From contig CANMML010000011.1 in assembly GCA_947499005.1 (NCBI GenBank), positions 62,001 to 126,000 on the forward strand: DNA of 64,000 nt. The letters run 5' to 3'. Shown here piece by piece: positions 23,318 through 60,718 of this stretch. Numbering within the stretch: position 1 is the stretch's first letter; each line of letters starts with the position of its first letter. The notes below the pieces were generated by a model. The model ran no database searches. It saw only the letters and a program-made list of their open reading frames with translations, and was not told where the DNA came from. Source of the DNA: an uncultured Aquimarina sp. (GTDB lineage Bacteria > Bacteroidota > Bacteroidia > Flavobacteriales > Flavobacteriaceae). Position numbers and translations under genes: made by a program.

Positions 23318-24988
23318 CTATCCGTTCATTGAGATAAGGAACTCTTCGTTGTTTCTTGTACTTTTAATTCTATCATTAATAGATTCCATAGCTTCTACAG
23401 GGTTCATATCAGCCAAGAATTTACGCATAATCCACATACGAGAAGATGTTGCATTATCTAATAATAAATCATCACGACGCGTACTACTCGATACCAAGTC
23501 AATAGCAGGGAAAATACGACGGTTCGCAATCTTACGATCCAATTGTAATTCCATATTTCCAGTTCCTTTGAATTCTTCAAAGATAACTTCATCCATTTTA
23601 GACCCCGTTTCTGTTAATGCAGTAGCAATAATCGTTAGGGAACCTCCGCCTTCAATATTTCTGGCAGCTCCAAAGAAACGTTTTGGTTTGTGAAGCGCAT
23701 TAGCATCTACACCACCACTTAATATTTTCCCACTAGCGGGTTGTACCGTATTGTATGCACGAGCTAGACGAGTGATAGAATCTAAAAGAATGACAACATC
23801 ATGTCCACATTCAACAAGACGTTTTGCTTTTTCAAGAACAATGTTAGCTACTTTAACATGCTCATGAGCTTCTTTATCAAAAGTAGAAGCGATTACTTCT
23901 CCTTGAACATTACGTTGCATATCGGTAACTTCTTCTGGACGTTCATCAATCAAAAGAATCATTTGATATACTTCTGGATGATTGGCAGCAATTCCATTAG
24001 CTACGTCTTTTAGTAGCATTGTTTTACCAGTTTTTGGTTGTGCTACGATCATTCCACGTTGTCCTTTTCCAATAGGAGCAAAGAGATCCATAATACGCGT
24101 TGAAATCGTACTTTGTCTATCTGCAATATTGAATTTTTGTTTAGGGAAAAGTGGAGTTAAGTGTTCAAAAGATACACGGTCACGTACCACTTGCGGATTC
24201 AATCCATTGATTTTATTTACCTTAATTAAAGGGAAATATTTCTCACCTTCTTTAGGTGGACGAATTTGTCCTAACACTGTATCACCAGTTTTTAATCCAA
24301 ATAAACGAATTTGTGATTGTGATACATAGATATCATCAGGAGAAGATAAGTAGTTGTAATCACTAGATCTTAAGAAACCATAGCCGTCTTGCATAATGTC
24401 AAGAACACCTTCGCTTTCTATGATAGCGTCAAACTCGTAATCAGGCTCTTTGTAGCGATTACGATTGTCTCTATTCCCTTTATTATCACGATTAGTATCG
24501 CGTTGGTTTTTATGAGGCTTGTTTTTTTGATGCCCGTTGTTAATATTAGTACGTTGAGGCTTTTGAGGCTTCTCTTCGTTACTAGGAGCGCTTTCTTTTC
24601 TAGGAGAGTTTTCTTTTTTAGGAGCTTCTTCCTTTTTAGGCGTCACGTCATCAAATTTCTTTTGACTAACGGTATCTTTAGATTCAAAAGCAGCTTTAGT
24701 ATCTTCGACAGTAGATTTAATTTTGTCTTCTGTTTTATCTAAAGTACTTGTTCGCTTTCTTGCTCTTTTTCTAGGTTGTTTATCCTCACTTACAGCAGCG
24801 TCTTTTACTGGCTTCTCTTCGGTGTTTTCAGTCCGAGGTGTTTTTTCATTGGTTTCCTGAAGTTCTACAATCTTATAAATTAAATCTAATTTTTTAAGTG
24901 TTCTGTACTTAGGGATTTCCAATGATTTTGCTATTTCCTGTAATTCAGGAAGCTTTTTTGATTTTAACCCAGCAACGATATCTGACAT
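23318..24988 (-). CDS. rho: Transcription termination factor Rho
   Basis: 556 aa from ATG 24988; the frame is open 15 codons upstream, but the conserved N-terminus [19 protein letters not shown] starts here. The Rho N domain (1-45) is followed by about 150 residues of charged low-complexity sequence, a usual Bacteroidota insertion, then the cold-shock RNA-binding domain ([20 protein letters not shown]) and the ATPase core with Walker A in [17 protein letters not shown] and Walker B in [16 protein letters not shown]. Hexameric RNA helicase ending untranslated transcripts. Confidence 0.96.
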
Positions 24989-25737: not shown

Positions 25738-25811
25738 GGCCTCGTAGCATAACTGAATAGTGCACTTGATTACGGCTCAAGAGGTTGCAGGTTTGAATCC
25801 TGCCGAGGTCA
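25738..25811 (+). tRNA. tRNA-Arg (anticodon ACG)
   Basis: Full cloverleaf: acceptor GGCCTCG with CGAGGTC, D stem GCAT/GTGC, anticodon stem CTTGA/TCAAG with loop TTACGGC (anticodon ACG), T arm GCAGG-TTTGAAT-CCTGC. CCA is not encoded. The integrase gene begins about 100 nt downstream, so this is the presumed integration site. Confidence 0.95.
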
Positions 25812-25812
25812 C
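25779..25812 (+). other. Candidate attL core (3' end of tRNA-Arg)
   Basis: Integrases of this class commonly recombine at the 3' half of tRNA genes. The segment from the anticodon stem to the 3' end is the expected core. The matching attR would lie beyond the right edge, so it cannot be confirmed here. Confidence 0.5.
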
Positions 25813-25834
25813 AATTTTATAAAAACAACGCATT

Positions 25835-25873
25835 TAAAAGGCGGGAAGATTTAACCAAATCTTCCCGCCTTGC
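25835..25873. terminator. Bidirectional terminator between tRNA and integrase
   Basis: AAGGCGGGAAGATTT and AAATCTTCCCGCCTT form a perfect long stem with a loop of about six nt; a partial T-run follows on the plus strand. Confidence 0.8.
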
Positions 25874-25909
25874 TTGTTTTATAGGTGTTTCACGAAAAAA
25901 TCAAATTTT

Positions 25910-27109
25910 ATGCAGGTAGTACAAAATAGAGTTTATTTACCTAATCATTTACCTAATATGAGTGTAGGCAAATTTTCATACAAAATAGTAATACGAAAAG
26001 ATCAAATTGATTCAATAGGAAAAGGGAGCCTTTACCTTCAACTGTACGATGGTAAAATAAAAAGAAGACCAATTCATATAAAAATACTTCCAAAAAATTG
26101 GGATCCTAACAAACAGGAGGTAAAGAGAGGAGACAATGATTATAAAGATTACAACCTAATAATTGGACAACTTAAAGCAAGGATAAATGATATAATGATC
26201 CAGTATAGGCTCCAGAAGTTGCCATTGAATAATAGTGATCTTTTAAAAGAAATTGACAATCCTAGTGCAAAACTTGATTTCGTGGCTTTTTGTAAGTTTT
26301 ACTTAGATGAAACAAAAGAAGTATTGGCCAATGGTACCTTAAGACAGCAAAAGTCTTTTATAACTAAATTAGAAAAGTATCAAAGGAATATACCTTTTCA
26401 TTCGATTGACGAATTGTGGTTGCAAAAGTTTAGAGCTTATATGCAAAAAAAGCTAAAAAATAAAGCGAATACTATTGAATCGACTATAAAAAACTTCAAA
26501 AAGTATCTTCATGCTGCCAATGAGAAAGGTGTTTATACTCCATTAAAATATGATAAGATTAGTGTAAAAAGGCAGCAAGGAGAACGAGAATTTTTAGCAC
26601 CGGAAGAATTGAAAAAATTAATAGAGTATTATGATTCAAAATTTATAAGTAAATCTTCTAAGCATATTTTAGCATGGTTCTTATATAGTTGTTGTACCGG
26701 AATAAGACTTGCGGACATTGAGTATTTAACTGCCTCTAACATCGTCGATAAATACATGATTTTAATAATGGATAAAACAAAAAAGGCACTGAAAATTAAA
26801 CTCAATAATACAGCTTTTAAGCTCTTAAGTACTCAAGATTTTTTCAAGAATAAATACACAAGAGAACATATAAATAGAGAACTAAAAGTTATTATGAGCA
26901 CATTGGAAATACGTAAACGAATTTCATATCATTGTAGCAGGCATACTTTTGCTACCAATTTCCTTATTTCAGGAGGTAGAGTAGAACAATTACAAATATT
27001 ACTTGGCCACTCGAAAATACAAACAACAATGGTTTATGTTCATATAGTTGAACAATATACTGATGAACAATTATTTATTATGGATGAAATATTTTCTGTT
27101 TCTACCTAA
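25910..27109 (+). CDS. int: Phage tyrosine integrase
   Basis: 399 aa from ATG 25910; the frame is open from a TTG at 25874. An N-terminal arm-binding domain (YKIVIRKDQIDSIGKGSLYLQLY), then a SAM-like core-binding domain, then the catalytic domain. Catalytic residues are visible in order: Arg in CTGIRLADIEY, Lys in MDKTKKALKI, His-x-x-Arg in YHCSRHTFA, His in LLGHSKIQTT and the nucleophile Tyr in TTMVYVHI. It catalyses integration and excision at the adjacent tRNA-Arg. It converges with the late operon; the stop codons overlap by a few bases. Confidence 0.93.
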   Translation: MQVVQNRVYLPNHLPNMSVGKFSYKIVIRKDQIDSIGKGSLYLQLYDGKIKRRPIHIKILPKNWDPNKQEVKRGDNDYKDYNLIIGQLKARINDIMIQYRLQKLPLNNSDLLKEIDNPSAKLDFVAFCKFYLDETKEVLANGTLRQQKSFITKLEKYQRNIPFHSIDELWLQKFRAYMQKKLKNKANTIESTIKNFKKYLHAANEKGVYTPLKYDKISVKRQQGEREFLAPEELKKLIEYYDSKFISKSSKHILAWFLYSCCTGIRLADIEYLTASNIVDKYMILIMDKTKKALKIKLNNTAFKLLSTQDFFKNKYTREHINRELKVIMSTLEIRKRISYHCSRHTFATNFLISGGRVEQLQILLGHSKIQTTMVYVHIVEQYTDEQLFIMDEIFSVST

Positions 27110-34092: not shown

Positions 34093-34356
34093 TTACGCTC
34101 CTTTAGGTGGCACAAATTGTTTTTCAATAGCAATTTGTAAAATAGTTTCACGGAGATTAAGTACATCATTAGCGAGGTAAAGATCTTTTACTTCGTTGTC
34201 TTCGATATAATGTACGGTCATAGAATAGCAGTGAAGCAATGCTTTTTGTAAGAAAAACGCATCGAGCGAATTACATTGTTCTACTAATTGTTGTTGTGCG
34301 GGTGTAAGCAGGATCATCCTAGATCCTGGCATTACTTTTTCTTTTTTTTGGGTCAT
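34093..34356 (-). CDS. TPAQ-family small phage protein, copy A
   Basis: 87 aa from ATG 34356, chosen because all four family members start at an equivalent MxxKKE or Mxx site just after their RNA leader; the frame is open 9 codons further upstream inside the leader. Predicted all-helical. Family features: TPAQ at residues 18-21, a helix with LLHCYSMTVHYIEDNEV, and LYLANDVLNLRETILQIA. Very close to copy B (47490-47750), more distant from copies C and D. No match to any family I know. The cassette sits between two terminators and has its own promoter, so it is an independent unit. Function unknown. Confidence 0.8.
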   Translation of the reverse strand: MTQKKEKVMPGSRMILLTPAQQQLVEQCNSLDAFFLQKALLHCYSMTVHYIEDNEVKDLYLANDVLNLRETILQIAIEKQFVPPKGA

Positions 34357-34373: not shown

Positions 34374-34505
34374 GCGAGCACACCCTTAGGGCTGACCCAA
34401 CAATTCAAGGAATTGGAGTTACAGCACTTTCGGAACTGATACCCATAGGTATGCTCTTATCGTAAATATGTAAAATCAAGGATTGCTCCTTAAATTATTG
34501 GGTCA
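34374..34505 (-). ncRNA. Pseudoknotted RNA leader, cassette A
   Basis: Starts about 4 nt after a TATGTTTG box. P1 pairs 34488-34505 with 34393-34410 (18 pairs counting G-U; outer part TGACCCAA with TTGGGTCA). A strand inside the P1 loop (GAGCATACC, 34448-34456) pairs with GGTGTGCTC just beyond P1 (34376-34384), giving an H-type pseudoknot. AAGGA-GCAA-TCCTT makes an alternative hairpin with a GNRA loop. The pseudoknot ends about 18 nt before the start codon. Confidence 0.7.
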
Positions 34506-34508
34506 CAA

Positions 34509-34516
34509 CAAACATA
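34509..34516 (-). promoter_or_regulatory. TAnnTTTG (-7) box of cassette A
   Basis: Minus-strand TATGTTTG immediately upstream of the RNA; no clear TTTG at -33. Confidence 0.55.
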
Positions 34517-42723: not shown

Positions 42724-44052
42724 TTAAATGGTGTTTTCTACTCCCATCGGATTTTTGTCCAATGTGGTTAGGGTTACGTTGGCAAAATCACCTTCTAATT
42801 CACGGGGCCATCCGTTGAAACCTCGAATAAATCGCCATGAATCTAAAGTTAAATCTCTCTTGGGGCGCATTAAAGCATTGAGGATCATAAAGGCTTCGCG
42901 TTTATCGCTTCCTCCTCCAGAGCTTTGCTTTCCCCCTGGAATACCTGCACCTATTAATGTGGCATCGATACCCATGGAAACTAATATCTCGGCATTCGCA
43001 GCAGTAGCTTCAGGTAGAAACGCGCCTTCTTTAAATTTGTCATCGATTGGGACGACCTCTATCCCTTTTACATAGTTTCCGTCAGAATCCATATATACGG
43101 TAGATTGAATCGATTTACCAGCATTTTTAGTACCCGATAAATGATCATCAATAGCGGTATTTAAAGCCTTTCGTATTTTCTTCTTCTCATCGGGGCTGAA
43201 TTCTCCCCAATCACTTCCGTAGGTTCTTGTAAAGTACTCTTCATTGACGTACACCATATATTTGATGTTCAACTGATTTTCGAAAATGTTCTTCTTGTAT
43301 TGAGGGATTGAATTGGCTACGTCCATCCATCCGTTGCGAAAGACTGCGTGCCAATCCACTTCGGGATAGTAGACCTCATGCATTAACGGGAAGTAATGAG
43401 CCAGCACAAACTTGTGAATCTTCTTTTTCTTACAATACGCTTTAATGTTTTCAAAACCGTAAAGAGGATCGATAAGAGGAATTTTAGCAACATACTTTCC
43501 TGCGATGTCTGTACCCGAATTCCAGTTTTGACAATAGTATACATTGTCGATCGTTCCTGTTTTTTCGTTGACTTCTTCGTAACGAACTTTGGGAGTTTCC
43601 AAAACACGAGAACTATATATTTCATTCCAATCATTGGTAAGTACATGCTCTACAAATGAAAGGCTAAAGGTCTCTTCGCCTTGTATTTTCTCAGTCCAAA
43701 AACGATGCATCATATTTCTTTCGAAGAATTCAGCAATTTTAGGGTAAGTATTAATATCCTCTAGGTACTTAGATTTTTTGCCATTCTCATAGACGTACTT
43801 GAATAATTCGAAACCTTGGCCATAGTGTGCATATTTCTGAACTCGTAAAGCAGACCCAGCAACACCATTTTTACCAATTGCTTCTAAGAAGTTTTGCGGG
43901 TATCGATTATCATCTCCCCAAAAAGCTATTTTCTTACCGTTTTTGCTTTCGGGGCTAATTACAGTATGACTAGTTTTATTTGAATTTTGAATAACTAAAG
44001 TCGAACGACCTGTACCAAAATAGATACCGTTGCTGTTGAATGTTTCTGACAT
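42724..44052 (-). CDS. Phage portal protein
   Basis: 442 aa with the portal-like N-terminus KKIAFWGDDNRYPQNFLEAIGKNGVAGSALRVQ near 39-70 (split here as context, not one motif), a middle domain with LAHYFPLMHEVYYPEVDWHA, and a C-terminal part containing IDATLIGAGIPGGKQSSGGG near 365-385. It forms the dodecameric DNA gate at the capsid vertex. It lies downstream of the terminase genes, as in most tailed phages, and its start overlaps the preceding stop by one base. Confidence 0.72.
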   Translation of the reverse strand: MSETFNSNGIYFGTGRSTLVIQNSNKTSHTVISPESKNGKKIAFWGDDNRYPQNFLEAIGKNGVAGSALRVQKYAHYGQGFELFKYVYENGKKSKYLEDINTYPKIAEFFERNMMHRFWTEKIQGEETFSLSFVEHVLTNDWNEIYSSRVLETPKVRYEEVNEKTGTIDNVYYCQNWNSGTDIAGKYVAKIPLIDPLYGFENIKAYCKKKKIHKFVLAHYFPLMHEVYYPEVDWHAVFRNGWMDVANSIPQYKKNIFENQLNIKYMVYVNEEYFTRTYGSDWGEFSPDEKKKIRKALNTAIDDHLSGTKNAGKSIQSTVYMDSDGNYVKGIEVVPIDDKFKEGAFLPEATAANAEILVSMGIDATLIGAGIPGGKQSSGGGSDKREAFMILNALMRPKRDLTLDSWRFIRGFNGWPRELEGDFANVTLTTLDKNPMGVENTI

Positions 44053-44621: not shown

Positions 44622-46133
44622 TTACTTAAGAACAATCGTCTCCATTGGACGATCTTCTTCGGACACCGACTTACCGCTTAGACCTCCTTTAAACATCGCA
44701 TAGAAAGGGTAATCGAATGCATCGGATAAGTGGGTGGCGTGCTGCTGTGGTATCACCTTACTGCGCTCACTACGTTTATCCTTCTCGAAACCTTTGGAAG
44801 TCTCTCTTGCTTCGGCATGCTCCATAGAAATAATGAGATCGGCACAATTGACTTCGTTGAATCTTACGATAGGTAAACCAGTACGTCCTTCATCTCTAAA
44901 GGATAAGTTGAATAGCCTAAACTTATCTAGGTAGTCTGGGTTCTTACCTATGGTTTTCTTTTCTACCTTCCAGCCATGATTGCGCATGATGTCTGAGGCT
45001 TGATCTGCAAAAGTCTTTTTACTATTGGCTGTACGAGAGTTACCCTGTCTATCGTAATAGAATTTTACCGTTTTAGTTTTATGGTATTTGTAATAAGGAA
45101 GGAACTTCTCTAACCATAAGTGGTCTAATATCTTTGGTGTCTTAACAAAGAATGATTTTAAAACACGATAGGTATTGTCTTTGTACTGAGCAATAACCAT
45201 ACTGTTGATGTTAGCACCCCAATCGACACCCATAATTAATGGGAGGTTAGGGTCAAGGTCTAAGTCTTGTCGACAATCAAATGATTGTCCATTAGCGTCT
45301 TTTAGAGGTATACCCGTTAAGAATCCATCGTTATCAAAATCTGTGTAATAATGAATATCAGGATTTAATTGTGCATAAAACCCGTCTTTTATTTCTTTGG
45401 GTCTTATGTTAAGCATTTCGGCATTGTAGATGACTTCGCTGGTGTAAGCTTCTTTCATATACTCGAAATAATCGGGTCTAAGGTTTTGCATATTTACCTT
45501 AGCTGTAGCCTTAAGAAACATTACTTTGTTTGGTTTCTTCTTGGCTAATTCTTCTTTATCGACAAACCATTTACCCTTCTTGGTGATTGGAGTAGAGGAA
45601 GTGTATAATTCACTATGAAGCAAAGAGCATTTTTTAAATATATCTTTCTGTGCTCTATTGGTGTTTTTTACGTTAACCGCTAATTTTTCTTCATCACAAA
45701 TAGCCGTTTCATCATTAACAATAGCAAAAGCATTTAAACCACGCCCACTATCGGCATGATCTAGACTTACCAATTGAAATATAGCTCCGTTACTAAAGTG
45801 AATAATGTTGTGCCAACTTTCTGGAGATTGAAAGGGCATTGCAAAACCTTTCTTTTTTCCTTGACTAGAGCCGATTACGTAATCGTAATCTTGGTACAAC
45901 CCAAATAGTTCTAAACCTTCTTTAATTGCAGGGATAAAACGAGTTAATATTTGCGAATACGTTTTACCAACCATTGCAAAAGAGGCTTTAGGCATTTGCT
46001 TTACAAGTTGAGTACATCTACCACCTATAATGGTAGTTTTTCCCATACCACGACCACCTTCAACATAAACTGTTTTTTGTGGAGCCGTTAAAACAACATA
46101 CTGCGCGGAGTTTAGGACAACTTGTTTATTCAT
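44622..46133 (-). CDS. terL: Terminase large subunit
   Basis: 503 aa. Walker A is GGRGMGKT at 26-33; the Walker B/C region includes AFAIVNDETAICDEEKLA near 130-147. The RNase H-like nuclease half has LIMGVDWGANINSMVIAQY near 295 with the first catalytic Asp, and later acidic residues including LSDAFDYPFYAMF near 470. It packages DNA into the prohead and cuts it. Overlaps the small-subunit gene by 8 nt. Confidence 0.9.
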   Translation of the reverse strand: MNKQVVLNSAQYVVLTAPQKTVYVEGGRGMGKTTIIGGRCTQLVKQMPKASFAMVGKTYSQILTRFIPAIKEGLELFGLYQDYDYVIGSSQGKKKGFAMPFQSPESWHNIIHFSNGAIFQLVSLDHADSGRGLNAFAIVNDETAICDEEKLAVNVKNTNRAQKDIFKKCSLLHSELYTSSTPITKKGKWFVDKEELAKKKPNKVMFLKATAKVNMQNLRPDYFEYMKEAYTSEVIYNAEMLNIRPKEIKDGFYAQLNPDIHYYTDFDNDGFLTGIPLKDANGQSFDCRQDLDLDPNLPLIMGVDWGANINSMVIAQYKDNTYRVLKSFFVKTPKILDHLWLEKFLPYYKYHKTKTVKFYYDRQGNSRTANSKKTFADQASDIMRNHGWKVEKKTIGKNPDYLDKFRLFNLSFRDEGRTGLPIVRFNEVNCADLIISMEHAEARETSKGFEKDKRSERSKVIPQQHATHLSDAFDYPFYAMFKGGLSGKSVSEEDRPMETIVLK

Positions 46134-46704
46134 TCGTATCTGCTTTAGGTTCTTCTACTTCTTCGTATTCTATATCTTGTATATCATTAAAATCTAAAAC
46201 ACCTCCCTTTTTGATTAGTGCATCCAGTTGTTTTACAGACTTGTCGTGAATGGTAACTTCTAGGTTTAAATTTTCAATCTTTTCTAGATTAAATTGAAGC
46301 TCATCATCGTGTAGACCATAAAGGTTTTCTAGTTTGGTAAGGCAACGTTCTACGATATCTAATTCGTCACGATCTAAAGCGATTTCCATTAGTTGTTCTC
46401 GCTTTATAATCATTATGTGGCGGTAACCTTCTTTATCGGCTTTCGCGAATGATCCATATAGGCGAATGGCGTTTGCCATATCTCTATATGCCGAAGCAGT
46501 AGAAATTTCGTGTTGATCTTCGAGCATTGCGGCAACACGAGTTTTGTCTGTCCATTGCGTCAGCATATTATATGCAGATTTCCAACGGTTTTTTAATTCC
46601 TGTTCGTGCTTACTTAACTTTATTCTGCTTTCTGGATCATAAGAAGCCAATATGTTTTCGAAGTGCTTTGCGCTCTTTTTTGTCGTAGATAGTTTCTTAC
46701 TCAA
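46126..46704 (-). CDS. Putative terminase small subunit
   Basis: 192 aa, helical, with a helix-turn-helix-like stretch QWTDKTRVAAMLEDQHEIST then ASAYRDMANAIRLYG (about 50-85) and an acidic C-terminus (DIQDIEYEEVEEPKAD). Located just upstream of terL with an 8-nt overlap, as expected for terS. Assignment is from position and fold pattern. Confidence 0.68.
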   Translation of the reverse strand: MSKKLSTTKKSAKHFENILASYDPESRIKLSKHEQELKNRWKSAYNMLTQWTDKTRVAAMLEDQHEISTASAYRDMANAIRLYGSFAKADKEGYRHIMIIKREQLMEIALDRDELDIVERCLTKLENLYGLHDDELQFNLEKIENLNLEVTIHDKSVKQLDALIKKGGVLDFNDIQDIEYEEVEEPKADTNE

Positions 46705-47449
46705 TGCCTAATTGTTTTTTGAGTTCGACAATATTTATTTGCATTTGGTGAATGCTGCTTTCTGCTTTGGTGATTTTGGTTTCTAGCTTTAGGGCTTCGT
46801 TACCTTGTGCGGTTTCTAGCTCCTGGTACCAACCTTCGACACGTTTTGTTTTTTTGGTTACGTAGCTGCGTAGGTTGTATAGCTGCTTTGTCTTTTCTTC
46901 TGGGGTTAGTTTCGAAAAGTCGTTAGGGTCTTCGGTGACTAGATATTGTTTGTGTTTGTTGTAGTACTGCAACTCTTGCCAAAGCAGTTTCTTTTCGGTG
47001 TCTTTTTGGCGAATCTGTATTTGGATTAAACGCGCTTTTTCTTCCTCTTCGTCCGCTAGTCCGTTGAGTACTTGCTTTAGGTCGCACATGTCGTAAAACA
47101 ATTGTACGGCACGGCGATGTTTTGGCTTTAGATCGTGCGGAAGCGACGAATACAACACCCGATTCGCTTCTTCTTTGGCTCGGGCTTCGAGCTTGCTTTT
47201 TTCTTGATGTTGGGTATCGTTGGTGATCGAAGTCTGTACAATAACAGGCTTTGGTGGGGTAGGCTTGTGTTGGTGCTTTTCGTAGTACTTTTTTAGCTCG
47301 TACTCTAACGTCAGCTTATTACGGGCATTTTTACGGCTACGGAAGTTTTTAACCAGCCGTTTATTACAGCAAGAAAGGGAGTTGTATATAGCAACTCCCT
47401 TTTCGTAATCTTTATCGTTTAGCCACGCTTTTATCGCTTCTACTGCCAT
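46697..47449 (-). CDS. Hypothetical coiled-coil phage protein
   Basis: 250 aa from ATG 47449 (MAVEAIKAWLNDKDYEKGVA); the frame is open 8 codons further. Basic N-terminus (RLVKNFRSRKNARNKL), long charged helices and a coiled coil to the end (SSIHQMQINIVELKKQLG). No known family. Local base composition is less AT-rich than its neighbours, as is copy B upstream. It overlaps the presumed terS by 8 nt, so it may serve DNA packaging. Confidence 0.65.
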   Translation of the reverse strand: MAVEAIKAWLNDKDYEKGVAIYNSLSCCNKRLVKNFRSRKNARNKLTLEYELKKYYEKHQHKPTPPKPVIVQTSITNDTQHQEKSKLEARAKEEANRVLYSSLPHDLKPKHRRAVQLFYDMCDLKQVLNGLADEEEEKARLIQIQIRQKDTEKKLLWQELQYYNKHKQYLVTEDPNDFSKLTPEEKTKQLYNLRSYVTKKTKRVEGWYQELETAQGNEALKLETKITKAESSIHQMQINIVELKKQLGIE

Positions 47450-47489
47450 GGTACGAAATACCGAAAATGGCAATAGTTAAAAAAGGACA

Positions 47490-47750
47490 CTACATCGCTG
47501 GTGGCGTGTAATGTCGCTCGTAGGCTAGTTGTAATAGTGTTTCCCGAAGGTTTAACACATCGTTAGCGAGGTATAGGTCTTTTACCTCGTTTTCTTCTAC
47601 ATAGTGAACCGTGATCGAATAACAATGAAGCAATGCCGCTTGCATAATAAAGGCATCTACTTGATTGCATTGGTCTACTAATTTTTGTTGTGCGGGTGTA
47701 AGCAGGACCATCTTTGATCCTGGCACTACATTTTCTTTCTTTTTGGACAT
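47490..47750 (-). CDS. TPAQ-family small phage protein, copy B
   Basis: 86 aa from ATG 47750, matching the start used in copy A; the frame extends 30 codons upstream into the structured leader and is not likely to be translated there. Contains TPAQ at 18-21, ALLHCYSITVHYVEENEVKD and LYLANDVLNLRETLLQLA, about 70 percent identical to copy A. Own promoter and pseudoknotted leader. Leads into the coiled-coil protein and terminase genes. Confidence 0.8.
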   Translation of the reverse strand: MSKKKENVVPGSKMVLLTPAQQKLVDQCNQVDAFIMQAALLHCYSITVHYVEENEVKDLYLANDVLNLRETLLQLAYERHYTPPAM

Positions 47751-47768: not shown

Positions 47769-47900
47769 CGAGCATACCCCGTAGGGTTGTCCAAACAATT
47801 CTAGGAATTGGAGTACAAGCCTTTCGGACATGCTACCCATAGGGCATGCTCTTATTGTAAATATGTATATTCAGGATTGCTCCCAAAATTGTTTAGACAA
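47769..47900 (-). ncRNA. Pseudoknotted RNA leader, cassette B
   Basis: Follows TAAGTTTG (47903-47910). P1 pairs 47883-47900 with 47787-47805 (outer part TTGTCTAAACAATT with AATTGTTTGGACAA). The inner strand GAGCATGCCC (47842-47851) pairs with GGGGTATGCTC (47770-47780) beyond P1. GGA-GCAA-TCC and CC-GAAA-GG small hairpins are also present. Ends about 19 nt before the start codon. Confidence 0.7.
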
Positions 47901-47902
47901 TA

Positions 47903-47910
47903 CAAACTTA
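47903..47910 (-). promoter_or_regulatory. TAnnTTTG (-7) box of cassette B
   Basis: Minus-strand TAAGTTTG, 2 nt upstream of the P1 helix; -33 element unclear. Confidence 0.5.
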
Positions 47911-47974: not shown

Positions 47975-47982
47975 TATATTTG
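47975..47982 (+). promoter_or_regulatory. TAnnTTTG (-7) box of plus-strand RNA
   Basis: TATATTTG, 3 nt before the P1 helix of the plus-strand RNA, back to back with the cassette B promoter about 65 nt away. Confidence 0.5.
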
Positions 47983-47985
47983 CGA

Positions 47986-48101
47986 ATCTCACCACTTAAT
48001 AAAACACCCGCAGCAGAAGACATATAGGCATGTCCTCCGCCTGCGGGTGTTTGCACTAAAAGTTAAGTGGTGAGATATTTAATTTTTGCGGAGGACTTTT
48101 T
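47986..48101 (+). ncRNA. Plus-strand pseudoknotted RNA
   Basis: P1: ATCTCACCACTTAA (47986-47999) with TTAAGTGGTGAGAT (48063-48076), 14 perfect pairs. P2 inside: AACACCCGCAG (48003-48013) with CTGCGGGTGTT (48041-48051), 11 perfect pairs. GTCCTCCGC in the P2 loop (48032-48040) is a perfect match to GCGGAGGAC (48088-48096) beyond P1, followed by TTTTT. Same topology as the four leaders but no sequence similarity. Precedes a tiny lipoprotein ORF. Because helices read on both strands, the strand is set by the promoter box and T-run. Confidence 0.65.
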
Positions 48102-48192: not shown

Positions 48193-48306
48193 ATGAATAA
48201 AAACTACTTTAATGCTTTCTTTCTAGTTGTGGCGATGTTATGCACCGCTTTGGTTTCCGTTAGTTGTAATAACCAATCGATTCGTTGTACGCTGTCTGCT
48301 TGCTGA
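48193..48306 (+). CDS. Tiny lipoprotein ORF, 37 aa
   Basis: ATG 48193. NKNYFNAFFLVVAMLCTALVS is a convincing lipoprotein signal with the lipid Cys in SVSCNN, followed by only a dozen residues ending IRCTLSAC. It is convergent with and overlaps the 3' end of the minus-strand gene 48204-48506. The C-terminal IRC...C echoes the 54-aa lipoprotein at 35462. It may be a real short lipoprotein or the stump of a longer one. Confidence 0.42.
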   Translation: MNKNYFNAFFLVVAMLCTALVSVSCNNQSIRCTLSAC

Positions 48307-48506
48307 ATAAGACTAGTAATTTGATCGTCTTTTAGCTTCGCTTTTTTCAACACCTCGAAACTTTTTTCGTTTACTTGAATGAAGGGAAATACAGTACTTA
48401 AAGCTAGTGCCACCAATGTCTGGTTCGATAGCTTTTTAGTGGTATCGATGAATCCTATATTGGGTACTCGATAATTACCGGGTCTAATTTCAAATGAATC
48501 GTTCAT
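48204..48506 (-). CDS. Hypothetical phage protein after tail gene
   Basis: 100 aa; starts NDSFEIRPGNYRVPNIGFID and continues with a hydrophobic helix (QTLVALALSTVFPFIQV). It lies 12 nt downstream of the putative tail-tube gene, where a tail-assembly chaperone or tail accessory protein could be expected. The last 30 or so codons are antisense to the tiny lipoprotein signal sequence, so the native end may have been altered. Confidence 0.58.
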   Translation of the reverse strand: MNDSFEIRPGNYRVPNIGFIDTTKKLSNQTLVALALSTVFPFIQVNEKSFEVLKKAKLKDDQITSLIQQADSVQRIDWLLQLTETKAVHNIATTRKKALK

Positions 48507-57160: not shown

Positions 57161-57988
57161 CTATTTATTTAATAGTGACTTTATCTTATCAACTATAAAT
57201 TCAGCTCCTGCTTGCCTTCCTTGTCCGTAATCACCTGGTTCTCCTAAATGACTTTCATAAACCCATTCTTTTAAAAGGTTTTCTGTAAGCAAAGTACTTA
57301 AATCAAAATTCAACGGGGTATTAGGATCAGGATTACCATTGACAGTTATAGTAGCTGGCTCTTCACCATTTGAAGCTGCTACTATTTTAGGAGCGTTTTC
57401 TTTATCTATACTGTAATTTTGTTTCGGCGGATTGACAACGAAATCACTATCTGTAATTTGTTTGAAATATTCTGTAAAATCGAAGTTTTGAGCATGCTTT
57501 AAATCATCATTTAAAATGATATAAGGACGAATTAAATCCCTAACATCTTCAACGGTATCTAAATCTATATAAGGAATAGTGGTTATAAATTCAAAAATAC
57601 CATGCGGATCTTTATCACCATCATTTAAATCCACTACCATATCGACTTTTAAGTAGTTTGTGGGGCATGTATGTTCTTCATAGAAATACTTTTTGTTTTC
57701 TAAATCTAACTCACCATTAAAGTACATATCTTCGAAAATGATTAAAGCATTATCTTTTCTTAGCATAGTGAGGCATTTGTCTTTTTTCCCGTCTGTTTTT
57801 TCTATGTATACATTTTTACCTATTACTTTGCCCTTATAAGCGTTTCCGCATTCATCACAATACCATGGGCCAAAAGTTGTATGTTGTTTACCGTCGTTAA
57901 AAAGGTGACTTACTTGATTTGATTTGCTGCCACAATGAGGACAATTAATAAAATGTTTGGTTTCTACAGTTGTATTTACTTTTTCCAT
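57161..57988 (-). CDS. Hypothetical zinc-ribbon phage protein
   Basis: 275 aa with an N-terminal zinc ribbon (CPHC at 16-19, CDEC at 44-47), followed by a mixed domain (MVVDLNDGDKDPHGIFEFI) and a C-terminal tail with LGEPGDYGQGRQAGAEFIVD. It begins 2 nt after the cassette C protein gene and is probably coupled to it. Confidence 0.65.
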   Translation of the reverse strand: MEKVNTTVETKHFINCPHCGSKSNQVSHLFNDGKQHTTFGPWYCDECGNAYKGKVIGKNVYIEKTDGKKDKCLTMLRKDNALIIFEDMYFNGELDLENKKYFYEEHTCPTNYLKVDMVVDLNDGDKDPHGIFEFITTIPYIDLDTVEDVRDLIRPYIILNDDLKHAQNFDFTEYFKQITDSDFVVNPPKQNYSIDKENAPKIVAASNGEEPATITVNGNPDPNTPLNFDLSTLLTENLLKEWVYESHLGEPGDYGQGRQAGAEFIVDKIKSLLNK

Positions 57989-57990
57989 CG

Positions 57991-58254
57991 TTAAGCAGTT
58001 TTAAGTTTGTTAGTTAAGTTTTCGTGGTGAAGATTTTCAATTTTCTGTAATACAAGATAAACATAAGATACTTTATCTAATTCGATCATGTCTCGATCGA
58101 TACAGAAAGCAGCTAAGAAAAAGGTGTGTCGGAAGCCTTCTAAAACTTCTTTAGTTTCTAATCCTGAAACTAGTTCGAGTAATTCTTTTTGGGCGGGTGT
58201 AACCTGTACACTTTCTGTGTGTAGGTTTTTGGGGTCGTTTTCTGGGTGTCGCAT
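57991..58254 (-). CDS. TPAQ-family small phage protein, copy C
   Basis: 87 aa from ATG 58254; the frame is open 62 codons further into the leader and beyond but that part is not protein-like. TPAQ at 19-22 (VQVTPAQKELLELVSGLE), then helices FRHTFFLAAFCIDRDMIEL and YVYLVLQKIENLH. The most diverged of the four. It leads into the 275-aa zinc-ribbon gene (gap 2 nt). Confidence 0.75.
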   Translation of the reverse strand: MRHPENDPKNLHTESVQVTPAQKELLELVSGLETKEVLEGFRHTFFLAAFCIDRDMIELDKVSYVYLVLQKIENLHHENLTNKLKTA

Positions 58255-58284: not shown

Positions 58285-58415
58285 AGCGTAGCTCCCTCTT
58301 GAGTTGCGACACCCACTAATTGCAGAGCAAATAGAATCGAGAGAAACTACGCCTATAACGTATAAAAAAATAAAAAGTCTTGACGGATTTACTCTGTCAA
58401 TTAATAGATGTCGCA
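58285..58415 (-). ncRNA. Pseudoknotted RNA leader, cassette C
   Basis: Follows TATATTTG (58419-58426). P1 pairs TGCGACA (58409-58415) with TGTCGCA (58305-58311); a second helix pairs AATTGaCAG (58394-58402) with CTGCAATT (58318-58325). GCGTAG inside P1 (58347-58352) pairs with CTACGC beyond it (58286-58291), extended by several G-U pairs. Sequence is unlike A, B and D but topology is the same. Ends about 31 nt before the start codon. Confidence 0.62.
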
Positions 58416-58418
58416 TGT

Positions 58419-58426
58419 CAAATATA
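58419..58426 (-). promoter_or_regulatory. TAnnTTTG (-7) box of cassette C
   Basis: Minus-strand TATATTTG, 3 nt before P1. Confidence 0.5.
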
Positions 58427-59758: not shown

Positions 59759-60298
59759 TTAGAAAAGCTTTAGTTGATTTCTAATCGCTTTACTTTTATC
59801 CTTCTTAGCCTCATTAAACGATTTTTCTGCAAAGAAGTAATCAACAACATCTTGTTTATCAGGATTATTGGTTGTTAGAAGCTTTCTTTTTAAAGATTTC
59901 ATCTCTTTTTCGGCTTCTTCTTGGCGTGCATGTGCTTCCCAATGCTTTTTATAATTGCCGAAAATTAGATTATCTATAGTGTCAAAAACCCATATTTCAA
60001 AATCTACATCTAACCAAGCTGCAAATTTTAACGCTAATGGTCTTAGCATTAATGTTCCTGCTTTTTTGTTCGATTTCACTAGATAATCTTCATTATAATG
60101 ATGGGAATTACCATCATTATTTAATTTTTCTAGTTTACATTTTAGGTAATTTTTGGTGCTGTTTAGTTTTAAAAATTCTCTAACATCCTTGTTGAAAATT
60201 TTAGCCATTTCCGTAGCATTCACCATTACATTATCATCCAATGGATTCAGTAAAAACTGGATTGCTGTTTCTTGATAAATAAATTCTAGTGTTTTCAT
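59759..60298 (-). CDS. KilA-N domain protein
   Basis: 179 aa. KilA-N features: NVMVNATEMAKIFNKDVREFL near 23-43 and LMLRPLALKFAAWLDVDFEI near 83-102, then a charged C-terminal coiled region. KilA-N domains bind DNA and are common in large phages. Its start overlaps the stop of the cassette D protein (TAATG), so translation is coupled. Confidence 0.82.
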   Translation of the reverse strand: MKTLEFIYQETAIQFLLNPLDDNVMVNATEMAKIFNKDVREFLKLNSTKNYLKCKLEKLNNDGNSHHYNEDYLVKSNKKAGTLMLRPLALKFAAWLDVDFEIWVFDTIDNLIFGNYKKHWEAHARQEEAEKEMKSLKRKLLTTNNPDKQDVVDYFFAEKSFNEAKKDKSKAIRNQLKLF

Positions 60299-60561
60299 TA
60301 GTTCTCGTTTTTAATGTTTTCGATAAGTTTTTCTAGGTAGATTTCTTGAACAGCCCATTGAAGCTGTAGGGTAAGTAACGATGCGTAATCGTCTTTAAGG
60401 TCGGTTTCACTAACGTAGTGTGTAGCGAGTAGGTAAGTGGTTTGTAAAGCCTGGTAATAATCTTCGGCTTCTAAATGATCGAGTTGGCGCAATAGTCGTA
60501 ATTGCGCAGGAGTAACTGCTACCAATTCGGTAGGGGTTACAAATTCTTTTTTTCGGTGCAT
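60298..60561 (-). CDS. TPAQ-family small phage protein, copy D
   Basis: 87 aa from ATG 60561, equivalent to the start in the other copies; the frame is open 52 codons into the leader. TPAQ at 17-20 (VAVTPAQLRLLRQLDHLEA), then YQALQTTYLLATHYVSETDL and LTLQLQWAVQEIYL. Coupled to the KilA-N gene downstream. Leader at 60582-60706. Confidence 0.8.
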   Translation of the reverse strand: MHRKKEFVTPTELVAVTPAQLRLLRQLDHLEAEDYYQALQTTYLLATHYVSETDLKDDYASLLTLQLQWAVQEIYLEKLIENIKNEN

Positions 60562-60581
60562 TTCAAAAAAGTATTTGTACG

Positions 60582-60706
60582 CGAGATTACCCTTAGGGTT
60601 GCACCAACGTTCTAGGAACGGAGTTACAGTCCTTTCGGATATGCTACCCTTAGGTAATCTCTTATCGTTATGTAATGTTTTCGGATTTCTCCTAAAACGT
60701 TGGTGC
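60582..60706 (-). ncRNA. Pseudoknotted RNA leader, cassette D
   Basis: Follows TATGTTTG (60711-60718). P1 pairs GCACCAACGTTTTAGG (60691-60706) with CCTAGAACGTTGGTGC (60601-60616), 16 pairs with one G-U. GAGATTACC inside (60653-60661) pairs with GGTAATCTC beyond P1 (60583-60591). Two GNRA hairpins: GGA-GAAA-TCC and TCC-GAAA-GGA. Ends about 21 nt before the start codon. Confidence 0.72.
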
Positions 60707-60710
60707 GATA

Positions 60711-60718
60711 CAAACATA
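60711..60718 (-). promoter_or_regulatory. TAnnTTTG (-7) box of cassette D
   Basis: Minus-strand TATGTTTG, 4 nt before P1; -33 element unclear. Confidence 0.55.

What the first reader, a model, noticed from the sequence alone, without database searches (positions are those of the whole stretch)
60298..60718. Four-copy pseudoknot RNA family placed before small proteins in one prophage
Four leaders (34374-34505, 47769-47900, 58285-58415, 60582-60706) share one layout: TAnnTTTG box, P1 helix starting 2-4 nt after it, an internal strand that pairs beyond P1 (H-type pseudoknot), then a start codon 18-31 nt later. P1 and pseudoknot strands differ between copies, yet both sides change together: GAGCATACC/GGTGTGCTC (A), GAGATTACC/GGTAATCTC (D), GCGTAG/CTACGC (C). 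A, B and D share GNRA-loop hairpins (GGA-GNRA-TCC) and a CCGAAAG motif. Such covariation is the mark of a selected RNA. I know no named RNA with this association; a self-regulating leader, an RNA-protein complex or an anti-host RNA are all possible.
Basis: seen in the sequence. Interest (0 to 1): 0.92.

Follow-up and report, generated by a model that had tools for sequence, protein, structure and literature searches.

The report
Four C4-type antisense RNA switches
One prophage carries four copies of an RNA switch that looks like the C4 antisense RNA known from phage P1, each with its own matching code aimed at the start codon of a small gene, so an already known way of keeping a virus quiet seems to be used four times over in one virus.

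Summary
The four leaders are real. Each starts 2-4 nt after a TAnnTTTG box and has an 18-21 bp helix (P1) and a 10-12 bp pseudoknot helix (P2), with compensatory changes between copies. First, the P1 3' strand also pairs 8-11 nt with the start codon of the next small ORF, so three segments vary together. Second, the region inside P2 in A, B and D is a C4 antisense core: Rfam c4-2 (RF02944) matches it fully or nearly, but below its cut-off (19-31 bits against 41). The anti-start segment lies in the linker of that fold. Phage P1 has the same order, annotated a1-b1-C4-a2-b2-icd-ant; D is likewise followed by an overlapping KilA-N gene. Of 8 above-cut-off c4-2 loci in other Flavobacteriaceae, 7 have repeat-core-repeat-ATG with a ~95-aa ORF. 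Copy C has the layout without a c4-2 match and recurs in Polaribacter phage Leef_1. So 'no named RNA' is wrong, but four differently coded C4 switches in one prophage, two before packaging and tail genes, is an unusual variant. Processing, repression and control of downstream genes are inferred. A fifth pseudoknot RNA (E, + strand) lies beside B.

The parts
34509..34516 (-). A: promoter-like box TATGTTTG
34486..34505 (-). A: P1 5' strand (a1b1-like)
34376..34456 (-). A: C4 core (outer stem = P2); Rfam c4-2 19.4 bits, model 2-76 of 79, E 0.11
34393..34400 (-). A: anti-start segment UUGGGUCA (a'-like)
34348..34356 (-). A: target AUGACCCAA (a2-like, includes start codon)
34093..34356 (-). A: small protein, 87 aa; next gene 191 nt on
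47903..47910 (-). B: box TAAGTTTG
47880..47900 (-). B: P1 5' strand (a1b1-like)
47770..47851 (-). B: C4 core; Rfam c4-2 31.1 bits, 1-79 of 79, E 0.0033
47788..47795 (-). B: anti-start segment UUUGGACA (a'-like)
47742..47750 (-). B: target AUGUCCAAA
47490..47750 (-). B: small protein, 86 aa; ORF 46697-47473 lies 16 nt on, before terminase large subunit (44622-46133) and portal (42724-44052)
58419..58426 (-). C: box TATATTTG
58398..58415 (-). C: P1 5' strand
58285..58353 (-). C: C4-like core by layout (P2 stem); no Rfam c4-2 match
58305..58315 (-). C: anti-start segment UGGGUGUCGCA
58243..58254 (-). C: target AUGCGACACCCA
57991..58254 (-). C: small protein, 87 aa, 32% identical to D's; gene 57161-57988 lies 2 nt on
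60711..60718 (-). D: box TATGTTTG
60689..60706 (-). D: P1 5' strand (a1b1-like)
60583..60661 (-). D: C4 core; Rfam c4-2 27.4 bits, 1-79 of 79 (only own-genome match listed in the genus-wide search, E 0.0028)
60600..60607 (-). D: anti-start segment UUGGUGCA (a'-like)
60553..60561 (-). D: target AUGCACCGA
60298..60561 (-). D: small protein, 87 aa; its stop overlaps the next ATG (TAATG)
59759..60298 (-). KilA-N domain gene overlapping the end of D's small ORF (position of ant in P1)
47975..48101 (+). E: divergent box-P1-P1b-P2 RNA; P2 GUCCUCCGC/GCGGAGGAC followed by UUUUU; no convincing start-codon target

Best explanation
A, B and D are C4-type antisense RNAs (c4-2 relatives) and C is a divergent relative with the same layout. 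Each unit reads box, a1b1-like 5' strand, about 70-80 nt core, target, small ORF, and in B, C and D closely following phage genes. The core's anti-start segment (a') pairs with the start codon and first codons of the small ORF and blocks its translation; loss of translation then silences the closely linked gene or operon (KilA-N for D, packaging genes for B). The 5' strand (P1) is a second, competing partner of the same segment, as a1/b1 is in phage P1. Shown here: the three segments, their joint variation between copies, the sub-threshold c4-2 match, the gene order. Inferred: 5' processing of the core (RNase P in P1), action in trans in the lysogen, translational block, effect on downstream genes, role in lysogeny and superinfection immunity.
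For: Rfam c4-2 matches B and D (1-79 of 79) and A (2-76) at the core; D is the only own-genome match listed in the genus-wide c4-2 search (E 0.0028). The alignments of B and D put P2, the internal loop (UAUGG/CCUAC in B, UAAGG/CCUAA in D), the GAAA hairpin and the second hairpin in the family's places. Between hairpin 2 and the inner strand lies, in A, B and D, the 8-mer complementary to the start; in the c4-2 alignment 7 of its 8 nt are unpaired in B and D. In P1 the corresponding place of C4 (by eye) holds CTGTCAA, complementary to a1 and a2. Of 8 above-cut-off c4-2 loci, 7 have a repeat of 11-23 nt before the core and close to or over the ATG of a 91-103 aa ORF, and antisense pieces were found in 6 of 6 cores tested. 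C and Leef_1: GCGACA to GCAACA in P1 5' strand and start, matched by UGUCGC to UGUUGC in the P1 3' strand. Each of six antisense segments pairs best with its own start.
Against: All three Rfam matches are below the 41-bit cut-off, and A was not found at all (E up to 10), only in the narrower; C, Leef_1 and L059 give none. The start pairing is only 8 nt in A, B and D; by duplex energy 7, 12, 0 and 25 of 394 other ATGs do as well for A, B, C and D. Isolated-core folds predict part of the anti-start segment paired. No second target (b2) was identified near the starts. The P1 helix (-24 to -29 kcal/mol) is stronger than the start pairing (-10 to -22), so without processing the precursor should be ON. 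Cross-pairing is not nil (C with A's start -9.7, Leef with C's -11.8). The family was not found in the fetched stretches of five other Aquimarina Leef-like prophages (L014-L021). No expression data.
Confidence: 0.83

Rival explanations
1. A purely cis-acting translational switch: the P1 3' strand toggles between the 5' strand (ON) and the start codon (OFF), governed by a ligand or by the small protein binding the core; no separate antisense RNA.
For: Two mutually exclusive partners of one strand on the same transcript; related proteins with basic N-termini in A, B and D.
Against: The core matches c4-2 and the P1 layout, whose known mode is antisense. Leef_1 keeps C's leader but its protein matches C's only over the first 9 residues, which speaks against autoregulation by the product.
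Confidence: 0.15
2. RNA/small-protein modules: the small protein itself (an Icd-like, possibly growth-inhibiting product) is what the C4 RNA controls, in the manner of a type I toxin-antitoxin; the downstream phage genes are incidental. This can hold together with the C4 reading.
For: In 7 of 7 clear c4-2 loci no same-strand ATG ORF of 60 aa or more starts within -12 to +200 nt of the small ORF's end. In P1 the product is Icd, inhibitor of cell division.
Against: In B and C the next phage ORF is 16 and 2 nt away and in D it overlaps. No homology detected between the window proteins and the c4-2 set. Toxicity unknown.
Confidence: 0.3
3. DNA-level inverted repeats (operators, invertible or recombination sites) rather than RNA.
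For: Long near-perfect inverted repeats next to promoter-like boxes; D keeps a 14-pair helix with two A-C.
Against: Allowing A-C instead of G-U shortens the helices in A, B and D, and none for C is listed. P2 interleaving, the c4-2 match and the start-codon match have no obvious DNA rationale (inference).
Confidence: 0.02

Closest known systems
C4 antisense RNA of phages P1 and P7 (immI: c4-icd-ant)
   Same: Promoter, a1/b1, 77-nt core, a2/b2, small ORF, overlapping next gene; part of the core complementary to both flanking targets. D is followed by an overlapping KilA-N gene.
   Different: Here the target includes the start codon itself (in P1 b2 ends 10 nt before icd); the 5' pairing is one continuous 18-21 bp helix; four copies with different codes; no RF01695 match was reported (only the best of a clan is kept).
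Rfam RF02944 c4-2 RNA
   Same: Outer stem, internal loop, GAAA hairpin, second hairpin, linker; Flavobacteriaceae loci with repeat-core-repeat-ATG and a 91-103 aa ORF.
   Different: Window copies A, B, D score 19-31 bits, under the 41-bit cut-off, and C does not match; in the c4-2 loci the target mostly lies just before the ATG and is read by two pieces (a', b').
Phage P4 CI RNA (seqA/seqB/seqC), recalled, no call
   Same: One RNA segment pairs with an upstream and a downstream site on the same transcript.
   Different: Acts by transcription termination; not compared here.
SAS/ESAS of Cluster K mycobacteriophages (PMC3203893, passages read)
   Same: Repeated leader elements with inverted repeats at starts of a subset of phage genes.
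   Different: Spacers mostly 4-13 bp; the authors found little support for mRNA hairpins; the 13-bp sequence is not at the window starts.
C4-homologous Group 1 sRNAs of Acinetobacter baumannii (PMC5320573, passages read)
   Same: Many C4-like RNAs in one genome, differing mainly in a'.
   Different: Not described in the passages read as several copies heading operons of one prophage.

Membership tests
Rfam c4-2 (RF02944) | Covariance-model score at or above 41 bits | tested here: not met
   B 31.1, D 27.4, A 19.4 bits; C none
Rfam c4-2 (RF02944) | Outer stem, internal loop, GAAA hairpin, second hairpin, linker | tested here: met
   Alignments of B and D seen; A matched 2-76 of 79, alignment not shown. 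Not met by C
C4 antisense RNA | Core segment complementary to the initiation region of the next small ORF | tested here: met
   8, 8, 11, 8 nt
C4 antisense RNA | Second copy of the target upstream of the core (a1/b1) | tested here: met
   P1 5' strand
C4 antisense RNA | Two separate target pieces a2 and b2 | tested here: inconclusive
   Only the a2-like piece is clear; b2 looked for by eye only
C4 antisense RNA | Small ORF overlapping an antirepressor-type gene | tested here: inconclusive
   D: TAATG overlap with a KilA-N gene, antirepressor role not shown. B and C are followed closely by other genes; A by a 191-nt gap
C4 antisense RNA | RNase P processing to a ~77-nt RNA | not testable with these tools
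   Needs RNA-seq or in vitro cleavage
SAS/ESAS | 13-bp sequence GGGATAGGAGCCC at starts | tested here: not met
   One site with 2 mismatches in the window, at 43363, none at A-D
Riboswitch | Ligand-binding core | not tested
   No ligand test possible

The most novel reading that the evidence does not exclude
One prophage uses four differently coded C4-type antisense switches, each with its own related small protein, to hold early (KilA-N), packaging and tail operons silent in the lysogen and in superinfecting siblings: RNA immunity over the whole lytic programme instead of over one antirepressor.
Probability: 0.35. Interest if true: 0.8.

Novelty: new variant of a known kind. Interest (0 to 1): 0.58.

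Why it matters
C4 RNA is a classic antisense immunity device, known to me (recalled) mainly for controlling one antirepressor. Four diverged copies in one Bacteroidota prophage show how antisense codes can split after duplication, since three segments per copy must change together. They put two copies ahead of structural genes and suggest a start-codon-targeting branch next to the c4-2 family. This makes multi-gate RNA control of lysogeny testable, and links c4-2 to a set of ~90-aa proteins of unknown function.

Tried and rejected
Homologues of the small proteins. With B as query: only own-contig proteins among 5.8 billion (2 hits), none in viral contigs or genome contigs, none in 55 other genomes. 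With C as query: only itself. A and D were not used as queries there. Pfam and PHROGs, PDB and PADLOC: nothing significant.

A/B/D core pattern in viral contigs: 0. CM R1 from A/B/D over 61 sources: the three copies (D twice, by an overlapping locus) and five weak rows, E 0.66-9.4. In 66 Aquimarina genomes R1 found the own three and one in G014 (E 0.008), which lies inside a dapF-like ORF and lacks the layout: rejected. C P2 pattern: one viral contig, Leef_1, and 1 of 395 genomes, the own. A looser C pattern: 12 stretches; the 11 others lack the layout. Weaker descriptor rows with an AUG in L015 and L020 were not followed. In one search (32 rows) L086 and L038 scored close behind Leef_1; I judged them operator-like repeats by eye.

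A c4-2-like pattern in viral contigs: at least 120 stretches (scan stopped at its limit), 80 held, 72 with flanks; only 7 of 72 had a repeat of 9 nt or more and 20 of 72 an ORF after the match. I judged the pattern too loose, so it gives no support for c4-2 in these contigs.

Window small proteins against the c4-2 small proteins: no homology detected. Leef gp31 (annotated Ant) against the window KilA-N gene: no similarity. Riboswitch, type III toxin-antitoxin, invertible promoter and antitermination readings were considered and dropped after the c4-2 match, without separate tests.

Full report
WHAT IS THERE. The four leaders lie on the - strand at the stated places. Each begins 2-4 nt after a TAnnTTTG box. 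P1 is 20 (A), 21 (B), 18 (C) and 18 (D) gapless pairs with 3, 4, 3 and 2 G-U; P2, which interleaves with P1, is 10, 11, 12 and 10 pairs. With A-C instead, the helices at these places are 8 (A), 8 (B) and 14 with two A-C (D), and none for C is among the five listed. Minimum-energy folds beat shuffles with z -2.9, -3.7, -5.8 and -4.2 for A, B, C and D. On the A/B/D alignment 97% of 101 cells pair, 6 of 35 pairs change on both sides, and 0 of 500 shuffles reach any of the five measures. A scan for the box plus a P1 of 12 or more pairs gives five hits in the window, A-D and one more (E, + strand), against 0-1 in five resamplings.

A THIRD STRAND. In each copy the 3' strand of P1 is also complementary to the start of the small ORF: AUGACCCAA (A), AUGUCCAAA (B), AUGCGACACCCA (C), AUGCACCGA (D). 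Taken singly the match is moderately rare: 6, 11, 2 and 7 of 394 other ATGs in the window match as long a run or longer in any register, and by duplex energy 7, 12, 0 and 25 of 394 do as well. It gains weight because it falls on the same segment in all copies, because the code differs from copy to copy, and because it recurs in another phage. Among six antisense segments and six starts each pairs best with its own, though cross-pairing is not nil (C with A's start -9.7, Leef with C's -11.8 kcal/mol).

THE SMALL PROTEINS. B's protein finds A's (73%) and D's (35%, E 3e-7) in the own genome, and C's is 32% identical to D's over 77 residues (E 2e-8), so all four are related. No relative outside the own contig was found with B or C as query.

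RELATIVES. The prophage is Leef_1-like (primase 47% identical). A descriptor scan of 278 kb, window included, found besides the window copies one strong case with a start match: Polaribacter phage Leef_1, 24549-24659 with ATG at 24710 (D fell under the threshold). Its leader is 79% identical to copy C, while its protein matches C's only over the first 9 residues. GCGACA becomes GCAACA in the P1 5' strand and at the start, and UGUCGC becomes UGUUGC in the P1 3' strand. The fetched stretches of five other Aquimarina Leef-like prophages (L014-L021) hold no comparable copy. In 51 Leef-like loci (961 kb) Leef_1 itself ranks first of 32 rows; L086 and L038 come close but look like operator repeats (by eye), and L059 is fourth. 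A box-P1-P2 scan of 1.13 Mb gave 9 hits against 4 in one resampled set: an E-type RNA in Chryseobacterium (L084), Leef_1, L058, then L059 (Bacteroidales), which also has a 10-nt start match.

WHAT IT IS. Sensitive Rfam scans give RF02944 c4-2 for B (31.1 bits, E 0.0033), D (27.4 bits, E 0.0074 and 0.036 in two searches) and A (19.4 bits, E 0.11; not found in the wider), each at the region inside P2. B and D match the model from end to end, A positions 2-76 of 79. The curators' cut-off is 41. In the genus-wide c4-2 search D is the only own-genome match listed (E 0.0028); B, which scores higher, is not listed there, and at E 0.001 the own genome had none; both searches used stricter filters. In the alignments of B and D our P2 is the outer stem, UAUGG/CCUAC (B) or UAAGG/CCUAA (D) the internal loop, CCGAAAGG the first hairpin, and CAAUUC-CUA-GAAUUG (B) or CGUUC-CUA-GAACG (D), which uses the inner part of the P1 3' strand, the second. 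The next 8 nt are the anti-start segment in A, B and D; in the c4-2 alignment 7 of these 8 are unpaired in B and D, though energy folds of the isolated cores pair part of them. UAUGG/CCUAAG with a GAAA loop resembles the known tetraloop-receptor motif (recalled, not tested). C, Leef_1 and L059 do not match c4-2; they are placed with it by layout only.

YARDSTICKS. The P1 record annotates a1 and b1 (as putative), C4 (77 nt), a2, b2, icd and the overlapping ant1, then kilA. The C4 segment CTGTCAA is complementary to both a1 and a2 and, by eye, sits after the second hairpin as our segment does. In the window D has 45 nt from the start of P1 to a 79-nt core, 21 nt from the core to the ATG, an 87-aa ORF, and a KilA-N gene overlapping its stop as TAATG. 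c4-2 is over the cut-off in 2 of 57 Aquimarina genomes and 4 of 149 family genomes, and matches 0 of 14 control genomes. Ten loci were examined, eight above the cut-off and two below. Seven, all of them above it, show a direct repeat of 11-23 nt before the core and within 10 nt of, or over, the ATG of a 91-103 aa ORF; L117 (above) lacks it, and L120 and L123 (below) have weaker or differently placed repeats. Two of the seven, L119 and L122, are near-identical loci of one genome. Antisense pieces were found in the 6 cores tested; the other four loci were not tested. In those 7 loci no further same-strand ATG ORF of 60 aa or more starts within -12 to +200 nt of the small ORF's end.

GENES BEHIND THE SWITCHES. 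B is followed after 16 nt by a 258-aa ORF (33% identical to its Leef_1 counterpart), then a 192-aa ORF, terminase large subunit and a weakly matched portal. C is followed after 2 nt by a 275-aa gene without family match. D overlaps the KilA-N gene. A precedes, after 191 nt, homologues of the Leef_1 neck and tape-measure proteins (53% and 41% identical; names from the Leef_1 record). So two of four stand before structural genes; whether they control them is inference.

HOW IT PROBABLY WORKS. In P1, C4 is cut from a longer transcript by RNase P and pairs with target mRNA, partly hiding the ribosome-binding site (passages in PMC5320573); icd is apparently required for ant expression (passages in PMC8201110). 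The same is proposed here four times, with separate codes. The P1 helix is stronger than the start pairing, so processing that frees the core, or pairing in trans, is required by this model and is not shown.

NOVELTY. Searches for 'C4 antisense RNA' with phage (12 papers listed), 'c4-a1b1' (1 paper), antisense, P4 and C4 terms (5 listed) and c4-2 with other terms (2 papers, without the term c4-2) showed no account of several C4 switches in one prophage; only listings and the passages named were seen. PMC2864571 (passages) lists c4 antisense RNA and c4-a1b1 for Proteobacteria and phages.

The gap after B is 16 nt, not 17; the G-U statement is now given with its control; c4-2 counts are split by cut-off; the unpaired part of the anti-start segment is 7 of 8, and the antirepressor row is now inconclusive, for which I lowered the main confidence from 0.85 to 0.83.

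Noticed in passing
window 47975-48101 (+ strand): RNA E: box, P1 (15 bp), inner P1b (10 bp), P2 GUCCUCCGC/GCGGAGGAC followed by UUUUU, so the pseudoknot stem may be the terminator. Same P2 with a different P1 in Chryseobacterium L084; eight viral loci L102-L109 were found by a pattern that demanded this P2, with P1 and P1b differing and still paired, most of all in L104 (L107 equals L084). Partial match in Flavobacterium phage fF4. No Rfam match over a cut-off.
   Followed up: partly
L111, L112, L116, L118, L119, L121, L122: c4-2 RNAs in Flavobacteriaceae genomes head variable 91-103 aa ORFs with no closely following ATG ORF and, in the six scanned, no Pfam match; they could be RNA-controlled small-protein modules of their own.
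   Followed up: partly
A 34520-34512/34375-34367; B 47914-47906/47769-47761; D 60724-60714/60582-60572: A further complementary pair (P0) of 9-11 bp with one change on both sides in B; its 5' half overlaps the promoter box and so would not be in a transcript starting at P1.
   Followed up: no
L059:19230-19404: Bacteroidales phage-like locus with box, P1 TGCTAACACATTC/GAATGTGTTAGCA, P2 and start ATGCTAACACA; the 26-aa ORF's stop overlaps the next ATG.
   Followed up: partly
window 25738-27109: tRNA gene followed by a phage integrase on the + strand, the likely left end of the prophage.
   Followed up: no
window 48193-48306 (+ strand): 37-codon ORF with a lipoprotein-like signal sequence (by eye) downstream of E, overlapping the end of 48204-48506 on the other strand.
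   Followed up: no
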